64,000 bases of DNA from Deltaproteobacteria bacterium (lineage in GTDB: Bacteria; Desulfobacterota; Binatia; Binatales; Binataceae): positions 62,001 through 126,000 of the forward strand of contig JAJXYF010000029.1 of NCBI GenBank assembly GCA_021780755.1, given 5' to 3'. This document shows positions 160 to 41,756 of the stretch, piece after piece (positions within the stretch are counted from its first letter, which is position 1; the number at the start of each line of letters is the position of its first letter). The notes beneath the pieces were generated by a model. It saw nothing but the letters and a program-made list of their open reading frames with translations, ran no database searches and had not been told where the DNA came from. A program made the translations under genes and the position numbers.

Positions 160-456
160 CGGGGTCATCGACGAGCCGTTCTTTGCGCTGCTGCACCCGC
201 TCCCCTCTCATGCCTCTACTTGTCCAGGTAGAGGTCGGCGCGAGTGCACGCAGTGAGCGTCGCGACGGGAGATGTCGCGCGAGCGTCGCAACGGTATTTT
301 CCGAGGCCCCTCGCAGGTATTTCCGCGGCCCTCTACTTCTCCAAGGAGAGGGAAAGCGCGATTGTGTGGCTGATATCTCTCAAAACATCCCGCGCCCATC
401 CCTGTCCACGAGACTGGCCACCTACCCGTGGTTTCTGCTCCAGCAACGTCTCATCC
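160..456. other. Intergenic stretch with small inverted repeats
   Basis: I see no convincing gene here. Reading frames on both strands are short and end in the adjacent repeat element. Two imperfect hairpins are visible: one near 211-233 with arms cctctac/gtagagg, and one near 331-354 with arms ccctct/agaggg. They may be remnants of another intergenic repeat. Confidence 0.4.
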
Positions 457-617
457 GCGCCCACACCAGCTCTCATCTACGCGATCCGCAAGACCTGTCG
501 TCTTATTGCTCCCCCTCCCTTTTTGGAGGGCGCAGCCCGCATCTTTACCAAAGGGAAGCCTGAAACCTCGTGAGGTTTCAGAAAACTATAAGTTTTGAGC
601 TCCTCAACCACTCTCCC
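457..617 (+). repeat. Dispersed palindromic element, copy 1 (long form)
   Basis: This is one of five related elements in the window. In element orientation it has a head shared with copy 5 (tctcatctacgcgatccg), a small hairpin gggc-gca-gccc (about 529-539), a spacer ending gggaagcc, a 22-bp palindrome ctgaaacctc-gt-gaggtttcag at 560-581, and a tail agttttgag...ctcaaccactctccc. It is the only copy in front of a gene; the apparent start codon of the next gene lies in its tail. Confidence 0.85.
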
Positions 618-1752
618 CGCTCTCGCACCCCGCCTCGCCGATTACCTCGGCACCGAGGTCGCGCGCATACGCGTGCTCGACAGCGGATGGGAAACCACCA
701 TCTATGAATTCACCGTCGGCGCCCGCTCGCCGCGACTCCCGGAACTCCCCGTCAACGCGCCAATGGTCCTGCGCCTGTTCGACGGCGTGCGCGCCATCGA
801 TAAGGCCGCCCGCGAAGCCCGCATGTTTTTCTACCTCGACGCCGCCGGCTATCCGGTGCCGCATCCGTATCTTTGCGAGCACTCCCGCGACGCCCTCGGC
901 GCCCCGTTCCTCCTGATGGATCGCGTGGCCGGCGGCCCGCTCTTTTCCGCCTCCAGCTTCCCCCTCGCCTTCAAGACCTTCTCGCTCGGCTTCATCGCCT
1001 TCGTCCGCGCGCAGGTCCGGCTCCATCGCCTCGACGCCAGCGACACCGCCGCGGCCGGCCTCCCGCGCGCTTTCGCCAACGCCTCGATGCCGCCCGCGAC
1101 ATCCCTGCTCGATCGCCTGCTCGCCATCATCGCCGATCGCGTCGCCGCCGGCCCGCTACCGGGACTTAACGACGCGCTCACCAGTCTGCGTGAACGCGCC
1201 GCCCGCTTTCGCGACGCGCCCGACACGCCGCCCGCGGACCGCACCGCGCCCGCGAATCCGCGCGCCCGCCCCGCCCGCTCCCGCGCGATACCGGACTCGA
1301 TCGTCCACATGGATTACCATCCGCAAAACGTCATCGTCCGCGGGATGCGCGTGACCGGCGTCATCGATTGGGTCAGCGCCGATCGCGGCGACCGCCATCT
1401 CGACGCCGCCACCACCTCGGCCATCCTCGCGACCTCCGCGATGGATCATCCGCGCTGGATGCGTGATAACGCCGCCGGCAACAGCCTGCGCACCCTCTTC
1501 GCCGCGCTCTACTTCCCCACCTACCACGCGCTCGCCCCGATGGATCTTGAACGCTTTCGCTACTGCCAGGCGGTCGCCGGGCTTTACCGGCTCTCGACTT
1601 TCGGCATGATGCTCACGCGCGGGCCCGAGTCCGTCGGCTATCGCCCCGCCGCCATCGCCAACGTCACACCCGACGTGGTCCGCCTGCTGTCGCGCTACAC
1701 CTCCCGCAAATCCTCCACCCCCACCTCCCTCCCCGCCCTTATGTCACCCTGA
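595..1752 (+). CDS. APH-family phosphotransferase
   Basis: A 385-residue protein of the aminoglycoside phosphotransferase / choline kinase-like fold. It carries the catalytic-loop motif HMDYHPQN (about residues 239-246) and a metal-binding region GVIDWVSADRGDRHLD, and an upstream DSGWETTIYEF segment fits the N-lobe. The family phosphorylates antibiotics, sugars or other small molecules in the cytoplasm; the substrate cannot be read from sequence. The only start giving a full N-lobe is TTG at 595, inside the tail of the repeat element and without a Shine-Dalgarno sequence; the next in-frame start, a GTG about 26 codons on, would cut the fold. The start is therefore uncertain. Confidence 0.8.
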   Translation: MSSSTTLPALAPRLADYLGTEVARIRVLDSGWETTIYEFTVGARSPRLPELPVNAPMVLRLFDGVRAIDKAAREARMFFYLDAAGYPVPHPYLCEHSRDALGAPFLLMDRVAGGPLFSASSFPLAFKTFSLGFIAFVRAQVRLHRLDASDTAAAGLPRAFANASMPPATSLLDRLLAIIADRVAAGPLPGLNDALTSLRERAARFRDAPDTPPADRTAPANPRARPARSRAIPDSIVHMDYHPQNVIVRGMRVTGVIDWVSADRGDRHLDAATTSAILATSAMDHPRWMRDNAAGNSLRTLFAALYFPTYHALAPMDLERFRYCQAVAGLYRLSTFGMMLTRGPESVGYRPAAIANVTPDVVRLLSRYTSRKSSTPTSLPALMSP

Positions 1753-1779: not shown

Positions 1780-1820
1780 CCGTCATCCTGAGCGGCTGCC
1801 GCGAAGGATCTCGCGCGGCC
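1780..1820 (+). repeat. GTCATCC...GAAGGATCTC dispersed motif
   Basis: The string ccgtcatcctgag...gcgaaggatctcgcgcggcc recurs in diverged form at 41582-41617 (cgtcatcccgaacgaagtgaaggatctcgtgcggcc). A partial extra ccgtcatcctga precedes it at 1760-1771, and ctcgcgcggccccc is repeated just downstream. Similar short strings are scattered in many environmental bacterial genomes. Function unknown. Confidence 0.5.
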
Positions 1821-1865
1821 CCCCGCGCGTTAAATGAAAGCCCTCGCGCGGCCCCCGCGCGCCAA

Positions 1866-1970
1866 TCTGTGGTCGCGGAATCCAAAACTGTAAGTTTTTC
1901 AGGAGACTGAAACCTCAATGAGGTTTCAGACTTCCCGTCTGTAAAGATACGGGCTCCGCCCTGTGAAAAG
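1866..1970 (-). repeat. Dispersed palindromic element, copy 2
   Basis: Read on the minus strand it contains agggcggagccc (hairpin with loop gga), atctttacagacgggaagtc, the palindrome ctgaaacctc-att-gaggtttcag (1907-1929 on the plus strand) and the tail agttttggattccgcgaccac. It lies after the phosphotransferase gene with its tail toward that gene's stop codon. Confidence 0.85.
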
Positions 1971-2389: not shown

Positions 2390-2485
2390 CGCAGGGCGAA
2401 GCCCGCATCTGTACAGATGGGAAGTCTGAAACCTTTATAAGGTTTCAGCAGACTTTAAGTTTTGAGTTCCTCGACCACTCTCCCG
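2390..2485 (+). repeat. Dispersed palindromic element, copy 3
   Basis: It contains agggcgaagccc (hairpin with loop gaa), atctgtacagatgggaagtc, the palindrome ctgaaacctt-tat-aaggtttcag at 2426-2448 and the tail agttttgagttcctcgaccactctccc. The inner C-G pair of the other copies is replaced by T-A on both arms, so pairing is kept. The tail faces the stop codon of acnA 18 bp away. Confidence 0.85.
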
Positions 2486-34199: not shown

Positions 34200-34240
34200 A
34201 CCGGATACATGGGGAGGTCAGAACATCGAGTGAAAAGATG

Positions 34241-34577
<337 letters not shown>

Positions 34578-34685
34578 CAGCGCCGATTGTAGCTTTTTTC
34601 AATGACTGACGCTCGCGTTGCTCGATCGCACGATCAGCGCCCCTTTATCGCGCTCCCGGCGTTGGGCGGTCTCGTTAGTTGTACG

Positions 34686-34792
34686 GCCCTTTTAGCAGGG
34701 CGAAGCCCGCATCTTTGTATATGAAGTTTGAAACCTCTATGAGGTTTCAGTTTCTTGAAGGTTAATGCTCCGCGCTCCGCGACCACTCCCCT
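34686..34792 (+). repeat. Dispersed palindromic element, copy 4
   Basis: It contains agggcgaagccc (loop gaa), atctttgtatatgaagt, the near palindrome ttgaaacctc-tat-gaggtttcag at 34728-34750 (outermost pair T-G, a wobble) and the tail gctccgcgaccactcccc. It lies between rnpB and the Zn-ribbon gene with its tail toward the latter's stop codon. Confidence 0.85.
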
Positions 34793-34825: not shown

Positions 34826-35542
34826 CTATTCTTTCGCGGTCGTCTCAAAGTAGAGGATGCGCTGGCAGTTGGGGCAGAAATGCACCTGCAAATGTTTCTG
34901 AATCTCGTTGTAGAGCTGGGGCGGCAGGCGCATCCGGCAGCCTTGGCAGGTGCCGCCCTTGGCCTCGGTGACGGCGACGCCGGCGCGGCGGCTGAAGATT
35001 ATTTCGTAGCGCTGGAGCAATGCGGCGTCGATATTTTTCTTCATCAGGTCGCGATCGACGTGCTGCTTGCTGATGGAGATTTTAAGGTCCTCGACCTGCG
35101 CCGCGGTTTCCTTTTCGGCCTCGATCAGCTCGGTGTGCCGCTGCTCGCTGAGTTCGCGCAGTTCCTTGATGCGCGCGGTGCGTTGTTCCGCGGTCTCCAT
35201 CATCGCGAGCAGTTCGCTCTCGAGGCGCTGCTTGGTCTCCTTGAGCGAATCGATCTCGTGATCGACGGCCAGCGACTCGCGGTCGTTGCGGACCTGGTTG
35301 CCGCGCATCCGCTTGTTGCGCTGGCGGGCCTCGTTTTCCGCGAGTTCCTTTTCGAGATTGCGGCGGGTCACCGCGCTCTGCTGATCTTCGAGCTGCAGGC
35401 CCTCCAGTTCGGCGGCGTAGTCCAGCGCTTCCTGGCGCAACTGGACCGACCGTCCAGAGACCGAGGCCAGCGCCTCCTCAAGTTCGCGCAGCTCCCGGTC
35501 GATCGCCTGGAGACTCATCAGCCGGGTTATCTCTTCAAGCAA
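34826..35542 (-). CDS. Coiled-coil zinc-ribbon protein (CT398/DUF164 type)
   Basis: 238 residues: a long antiparallel coiled coil (about 1-180) and a C-terminal zinc ribbon, GTCQGCRMRLPPQLYNEI...HFCPNCQRILYF, with CxxC pairs about 30 residues apart. The architecture matches the CT398 family, for which contacts with sigma-54 and type III secretion proteins have been reported in Chlamydia; the role here is unknown. It starts at ATG 35542, just downstream of the tRNA(CAU) gene on the same strand. Confidence 0.85.
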   Translation of the reverse strand: MLEEITRLMSLQAIDRELRELEEALASVSGRSVQLRQEALDYAAELEGLQLEDQQSAVTRRNLEKELAENEARQRNKRMRGNQVRNDRESLAVDHEIDSLKETKQRLESELLAMMETAEQRTARIKELRELSEQRHTELIEAEKETAAQVEDLKISISKQHVDRDLMKKNIDAALLQRYEIIFSRRAGVAVTEAKGGTCQGCRMRLPPQLYNEIQKHLQVHFCPNCQRILYFETTAKE

Positions 35543-41362: not shown

Positions 41363-41523
41363 AGAAGTTGTTGAGGAGCGCAAAACTTTTGGTTTTCTCT
41401 GAAACCTCATAAGGTTTCAGGCTTCCCTTTGGCTAAGGATGCGGGCTTCGCCCTGTAAAAAGGCAGGGATCAATGAAGACGATAGGTCATACGGATCGCG
41501 TAGATGAGACCTGCCGTGGGCGC
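41363..41523 (-). repeat. Dispersed palindromic element, copy 5 (long form)
   Basis: On the minus strand it has the same head as copy 1 (tctcatctacgcgatccg), agggcgaagccc (loop gaa), atccttagccaaagggaagcc, the palindrome ctgaaaccttatgaggtttcag (41399-41420 on the plus strand; inner pair T-G, a wobble) and the tail agttttgcgctcctcaacaac. It starts at the gshB stop codon, tail first. Confidence 0.85.
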
Positions 41524-41581
41524 GTACGCGACGTTCTGAAGGACGGGAAGGACGGGCGGTCATGGTCGTCTGCCCTCTTTT

Positions 41582-41617
41582 CGTCATCCCGAACGAAGTG
41601 AAGGATCTCGTGCGGCC
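41582..41617 (+). repeat. GTCATCC...GAAGGATCTC dispersed motif, second copy
   Basis: The sequence cgtcatcccgaacgaagtgaaggatctcgtgcggcc is a diverged copy of the motif at 1780-1820. Both lie within about 60 bp of a copy of the palindromic element. A further fragment cgtcatcccgaactg is at 41918-41932. The rest of 41524-41756 holds no gene I can support. Confidence 0.5.
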
Positions 41618-41756
41618 ATGCGCGCGCCAAAAGCGGCGAACCAAGCGCCGCGTCGGGATGGCGCCGGTGCGTGCCTTGCAACGGACGGTCTGGATCGGTA
41701 CCAATTAAAGACCGCGCGAATTCCCTACCCTCGCGGCAAGGGAAGTCCGTCGGGGT

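What the first reader, a model, noticed from the sequence alone, without database searches (positions are those of the whole stretch)
457..617. Family of five dispersed elements with two conserved hairpins
Copies at 457-617, 1866-1970, 2390-2485, 34686-34792 and 41363-41523 share a gggc-GNA-gccc hairpin, a spacer ending gggaag, a ctgaaacct..aggtttcag palindrome and an agttttgag..cgaccactctccc tail. Copies 1 and 5 have a longer shared head. I know no named family with this structure. The density (five in 64 kb) suggests hundreds per genome.
Basis: seen in the sequence. Interest (0 to 1): 0.8.

Follow-up and report, generated by a model that had tools for sequence, protein, structure and literature searches.

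The report
Mosaic palindromic repeats after genes
The five copies belong to a family of about 150 short, non-coding, hairpin-forming DNA repeats that have spread through this one bacterium's gaps between genes, usually landing within about 15 bases of a gene's end; they look like a new family of the known 'REP/BIME-like' mosaic repeats, without the transposase that usually goes with them.

Summary
All five copies exist at the stated places; a DNA search finds 42 in the genome and a covariance model 148 (150 candidates scored, so close to the cap). The core palindrome occurs 68 times against 0 for the reversed control pattern. The family is nearly private to this species: 7 in one congener, 3 weak in another genus, none in the other 5 congeners, and none elsewhere in a 395-genome phylum sample. 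It is not in Rfam, phages, plasmids or viral contigs. Each copy is a mosaic: a palindrome, on one side a constant 'tail' arm facing a gene, on the other an interchangeable arm (GGGCGAAGCCC hairpin, several other repeats, or the tail inverted). Tails sit a median 15 nt from gene 3' ends. At 20 orthologous gene ends in congeners the element is absent; at 13 with a conserved downstream flank the gap is 47-269 nt shorter. So these are insertions. No Y1 transposase (RAYT) is found in this genome or its congeners. Best reading: an untagged, RAYT-less REP/BIME/BOX-like non-autonomous element, perhaps tolerated as 3'-end hairpins. How it moves is unknown. New family, known kind.

The parts
445..617 (+). 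Copy 1, long form: head module H1 (445-513), GGGCGCAGCCC hairpin (528-538), GGGAAG (553-558), palindrome CTGAAACCTCGTGAGGTTTCAG (560-581), tail (582-617)
1866..1970 (-). Copy 2: tail (1866 side), palindrome 1907-1929, GGGCTCCGCCC hairpin 1951-1961
   Evidence: (C10:63863-63967)
2390..2485 (+). Copy 3: GGGCGAAGCCC hairpin 2394-2404, palindrome 2426-2448, tail 2449-2485, 17 nt before the aconitase stop codon
   Evidence: (C10:64388-64484)
34686..34792 (+). Copy 4 (diverged): hairpin 34698-34708, palindrome 34728-34750, tail to 34792; next to the 3' end of a zinc-ribbon protein gene (34826-35542)
   Evidence: (C10:96692-96792)
41363..41549 (-). Copy 5, long form: tail starts directly after the TAG stop of the glutathione synthetase gene (ends 41362), palindrome 41399-41420, GGGCTTCGCCC hairpin 41443-41453, inverted head module H1 to about 41549
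   Evidence: (C10:103361-103459)
1781..1828 (+). Neighbouring CGTC-type repeat (REP2: CGTCATCCTGAG...GAAGGATCTCGCGCGG) between the APH gene stop and copy 2
41582..41629 (+). Second CGTC-type repeat (REP2) just beyond the head of copy 5
34592..34640 (-). B module (GACGCTCGCGTTGCTCG type), one of the interchangeable modules, 67 nt from copy 4

Best explanation
A lineage-specific family of short (about 95-190 bp), non-coding, non-autonomous, palindrome-centred repeats of the REP/BIME/BOX kind. Shown: each copy is a mosaic around a nearly invariant palindrome (CTGAAACC..GGTTTCAG) with a constant tail arm on one side and an interchangeable arm on the other (GGGCGAAGCCC hairpin, modules here called B, H1, M7 and M8, or the tail itself inverted). 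Shown: copies were gained between genes relative to congeners and lie close to gene 3' ends. Inferred: they were copied in trans by an enzyme that is not a RAYT and was not identified, entered short gaps between genes where damage is smallest, and arms were exchanged at the palindrome or by nested insertion. Inferred, weak: once in place the palindrome acts as a 3'-end RNA hairpin (mRNA end protection or weak termination) and is kept for that.
For: Copy number and dispersion: 42 DNA matches and 148 model matches on many contigs. Narrow distribution. Mosaic order: eight modules mapped on 339 kb, the tail outermost and facing a gene; tail-palindrome-tail copies, one folding at -51.1 kcal/mol, z = -9.8. 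Insertion: element absent at 20 of 20 orthologous gene ends, and at 13 of 13 with a conserved downstream flank the gap is 47-269 nt longer here, median 130; about 22 bp in a congener where this genome has 750 bp holding copies 2 and 3. Placement: tail to 3' ends median 15 nt, 56 of 68 within 40 nt; 30 convergent, 44 same-direction, 7 divergent gaps; 7 of 120 overlap an ORF call. REP placement in the literature is the same: convergent REPs mostly <20 bp from both 3' ends (PMC3733652). Palindrome constraint: second pair outside the core 130/189 Watson-Crick against 103 (sd 4) in shuffles. Commonest neighbour genes are ordinary metabolism. No RAYT.
Against: No mobilising enzyme, no target-site duplication and no exact ends were found. 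Most of the stem is invariant rather than covarying, so RNA structure as such is only weakly supported. At one locus a composite is shared with congener G004, so not all copies are recent. The termination role is weak: the hairpin is followed by CTTCCCTTT, not a clean U run. Module boundaries and the 3'-end statistics rest on my own ORF calls and profiles.
Confidence: 0.7

Rival explanations
1. Classical MITEs: internally deleted relatives of a DDE or other cut-and-paste transposon, mobilised through the tail as a terminal inverted repeat.
For: Tail-palindrome-tail copies have inverted repeats over nearly their whole length; copies are net insertions.
Against: Most copies have a tail on one side only; no target-site duplication seen in 11 symmetric or near-symmetric copies; no transposase among the 25 commonest Pfam families of 120 flanking proteins (rarer families were not listed). 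Other transposase families were not searched in the genome.
Confidence: 0.15
2. Functional, non-mobile 3'-end RNA elements (bidirectional terminators or mRNA stabilisers) spread by selection.
For: Tail median 15 nt from stop codons, convergent gaps enriched (30 of 81 against 7 of 41, p = 0.036); compensatory changes; at the one shared locus the outer stems agree at 31 of 32 positions between species whose flanking genes are about 80% identical (p = 0.007); terminator-like call in the tail-to-head direction.
Against: Absent at the same gene ends in congeners; no U run; the same placement is published for REPs in general.
Confidence: 0.1
3. REPs spread by a RAYT that has since been lost or lies in the unassembled 5% of the genome.
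For: REP-like placement and size; completeness is 94.8%.
Against: No GTAG tag; no Y1_Tnp in any of seven genomes of the genus, including the congener with 7 copies.
Confidence: 0.1

Closest known systems
BIME/REP (GTAG-tagged repetitive extragenic palindromes with RAYT)
   Same: Short palindromes, >100 copies, mosaic with other motifs, between genes near 3' ends, rare in divergent gaps
   Different: No GTAG tag, no RAYT in the genus, longer elements with a constant non-palindromic tail arm and exchangeable second arm
CGTC-tagged REPs (PMC3733652)
   Same: No dedicated transposase known; same genomic placement; a CGTC-type repeat (REP2) stands next to several copies here
   Different: The palindrome here carries no CGTC tag and a longer stem; REP2 is a separate module
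Halothiobacillus neapolitanus 41-bp palindromes hosting CGTC-1 dimers (PMC3733652, section 7)
   Same: Consensus GGGaaGCTT-GAAAaACC..GGTaTTTCgAAGC-gCCC resembles GGGAAG(C/T)(T/C)TGAAACC..GGTTTCA..CTTCCC here
   Different: There it was found only around CGTC dimers; here it stands alone with a 3-7 nt loop and in other combinations. Relationship not tested (comparison by eye)
BOX elements and Neisserial intergenic mosaic elements (PMC3049150)
   Same: Composite repeats built from a small set of modules in permutations, with hairpin potential, clustered with other repeats
   Different: Sequence unrelated as far as tested (no Rfam match); BOX causes target-site duplications, none seen here

Membership tests
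RAYT-associated GTAG REP / REPIN | Short palindrome in >100 copies in extragenic DNA | tested here: met
   148 model matches; 7 of 120 overlap an ORF call
RAYT-associated GTAG REP / REPIN | GTAG tetranucleotide at the foot of the palindrome | tested here: not met
   The foot is GGGAAG(T/C) in nearly all copies
RAYT-associated GTAG REP / REPIN | RAYT (Y1 transposase) gene in the genome | tested here: not met
   PF01797: 0 in the genome and 0 in 6 congeners; found in 5 of 14 control genomes
CGTC-tagged REP | CGTC tag, 8-9 bp stem, loop 4-5, CCA tail | tested here: not met
   No CGTC at the palindrome foot; REP2 nearby looks CGTC-like but was not formally classified
BIME / BOX / NIME-like mosaic repeat (descriptive kind) | Small set of modules combined in permutations between genes | tested here: met
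   Eight modules, 154 module clusters mapped
BOX element | boxA/boxB/boxC sequences; target-site duplication | tested here: inconclusive
   No target-site duplication seen by eye in 11 copies; box sequences were not compared directly
MITE | Terminal inverted repeats shared with an autonomous transposon plus target-site duplication | tested here: inconclusive
   Inverted tails only in a minority of copies; no autonomous partner found, but transposase families other than Y1 were not searched in the whole genome
Known Rfam RNA family | Covariance-model match | tested here: not met
   None at the element copies at gathering threshold in the window; none at E<=1 in 10 element loci

The most novel reading that the evidence does not exclude
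A distinct class of palindrome-centred element whose two arms are exchanged at the palindrome (by hairpin-primed synthesis, template switching or a recombinase acting on the palindrome), so that one constant arm is combined with many partners, including its own inverse, and which spreads without a Y1 transposase.
Probability: 0.13. Interest if true: 0.7.

Novelty: new member of a known kind. Interest (0 to 1): 0.38.

Why it matters
It adds a well-sampled, undescribed family of REP-like mosaic repeats in an uncultured lineage. Because copy number differs sharply between congeners (148 here, 7 in one, none detected in the others) and empty sites can be read directly, it is a good natural case for asking how REP-like repeats that lack RAYT genes spread, which the literature leaves open for CGTC REPs. 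It also shows elements reshaping gene ends, in one case apparently supplying the start of a gene.

Tried and rejected
RAYT partner: searched, absent in the genus. Rfam family: none. Phage or plasmid origin: no match; no exact match to GGGAAGYCTGAAACCTNNNNAGGTTTCAG in viral or reference genome contigs. Covariation on the 40 closest copies alone was uninformative; wider sampling gave moderate support. Target-site duplications and exact ends: not resolvable, because gaps between genes have diverged too far between congeners. Flanking genes as transposase carriers: nothing recurrent. Assembly artefact or contamination: rejected, since copies sit beside ordinary genes with orthologues in congeners on many contigs.

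Full report
Observation. Copies 2 and 5 are in inverse orientation. The shared text is [TTTACAGGGCGAAGCCCGCATCTTTACAAAT][GGGAAG][palindrome CTGAAACCTNNNNAGGTTTCAG][tail AAAACTATAAGTTTTGAGTTCCTCAACAACTCTCCC]. Copy 1 as a query finds 42 places in the genome. I fetched these and more, aligned 40 and built a covariance model. It finds 148 places at E<=1e-3 in 3.9 Mb; 150 candidates were scored, so the number is near the cap. A model-free count agrees: the palindrome core occurs 68 times against 0 for the reversed pattern, or 80 against 8 with two mismatches.

Distribution. Among 57 relatives only congener G004 (7 copies) and G031 of another genus in the family (3 weak ones) match. In a 395-genome sample of the phylum only this genome and G031 match at E<=1e-6. 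The searches cap the candidates scored per genome (72 and 10), so weak copies may be missed, but the pattern counts in the other congeners are at the control level. Nothing was found in plasmids, phages, viral contigs or Rfam.

Anatomy. Profiles of eight modules mapped on 339 kb show a mosaic. The palindrome is the centre. One side is the tail, outermost and facing a gene. The other side is the GGGCGAAGCCC hairpin, a 'B' module (CCGAGCATCGCGAGCGTCAATC), 'H1' (CGCGCCCACGAAAGGTCTCATCGACGCGATCCGCATGACCT), 'M7' (CAGTCCTGAAAATCAGGTCAAGACTGTTGGGCTGCT), 'M8' (GAGCAACGCGAGCGTAGC..GGCATGGAATGCC), or the tail inverted. Copies with a tail on both sides exist; C26:164221-164313 folds into one long hairpin (-51.1 kcal/mol, z -9.8). 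A CGTC-type repeat (REP2) stands beside several copies. Much of the palindrome is invariant, so the 40-copy alignment shows almost no covariation. Over 189 palindromes the second pair outside the core is mostly C-G, with G-C and T-A alternatives: 130 Watson-Crick pairs against 103 (sd 4) in shuffles.

Placement. Of 120 strong copies 7 overlap an ORF call. Gaps are convergent 30, same-direction 44, divergent 7, against 7, 28 and 6 for gene pairs in the window (Fisher p = 0.036 for convergent). The tail lies a median 15 nt from gene 3' ends, 56 of 68 within 40 nt. In copy 5 it begins immediately after the stop codon of the glutathione synthetase gene. Gene calls are mine (open frames with GC3 contrast), so these figures are approximate.

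Insertion. In congener G004 the stops of the APH and aconitase genes are about 22 bp apart; here 750 bp separate them, filled by REP2, copy 2 and copy 3. After the glutathione synthetase gene five congeners lack copy 5. I took 24 gene ends beside tails, found orthologues in three congeners, and fetched 20 downstream stretches. None contains the palindrome (the one loose pattern hit, in L295, is not a palindrome). At the 13 loci where the far flank is also conserved the gap is longer here by 47-269 nt, median 130. So copies are gains in this lineage, or less likely losses in the relatives. One composite is shared with G004 at an orthologous site (C15:250020-250393 and G004 C26). There the outer stems of two palindromes agree at 31 of 32 positions although neighbouring genes are about 80% identical, which hints at constraint, though conversion between copies could do the same.

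Partner. PF01797 (Y1, RAYT) is absent in this genome and all six congeners while the control genomes ring. The 25 commonest Pfam families among 120 flanking proteins are ordinary metabolic enzymes. Other transposase families were not searched genome-wide.

Mechanism. Most likely these are non-autonomous, REP-like mosaic repeats copied by an unidentified enzyme into short gaps, where 3'-side positions are least harmful. That they are insertions is shown; the enzyme, the ends and the way arms are exchanged are inferred. A 3'-end RNA role is possible: read from the gene, the palindrome is followed by CTTCCCTTT, which a simple scan calls terminator-like, but there is no clean U run.

Comparison with the literature. 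REPs of the GTAG and CGTC super-families lie mostly <20 bp from the 3' ends of convergent genes, and CGTC REPs lack a dedicated transposase (PMC3733652). That paper also reports, in Halothiobacillus neapolitanus, 41-bp palindromes GGGaaGCTT-GAAAaACC..GGTaTTTCgAAGC-gCCC around CGTC-1 dimers, which resemble the palindrome here; I could not test common origin. BOX elements and Neisserial mosaic elements show the same modular style (PMC3049150). I therefore file the finding as a new family of a known descriptive kind (REP/BIME/BOX-like mosaic repeats), not as a member of the GTAG or CGTC super-families, whose tags it lacks.

Noticed in passing
window 595-1752: The APH-family gene lacks the congeners' N-terminus; its reading frame now opens inside the tail of copy 1 (TTG at 595), so the insertion appears to have supplied or changed the gene's start.
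   Followed up: partly
L081:1657-1770, L296:138-250, L289 near 887 (congener G004): Another palindromic repeat, GGGAACCTCTGCAC...GTGCAGAGGTTCCC, with a GTC-type REP dimer inside it in two copies; similar in layout to the H. neapolitanus palindromes that host CGTC REPs.
   Followed up: partly
window 1781-1860 and 41582-41629: CGTCATCCTGAG..GAAGGATCTCGCGCGG repeats (CGTC-type REPs), a second dispersed family often placed directly beside the tail.
   Followed up: partly
window about 2090-2150: Short tandem-like stretch CATTTTGAGTGAACTCTTTCACCCATTTTGGGGAAATCCTTCA between copies 2 and 3, possibly the remnant of another insertion.
   Followed up: no
C15:250020-250393 (L036) and G004 C26 (L077): A composite of two elements conserved at an orthologous site in two species, with stems better conserved than the surroundings.
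   Followed up: partly
window 34239-34575: RNase P RNA gene (class A, - strand) lies next to copy 4.
   Followed up: no
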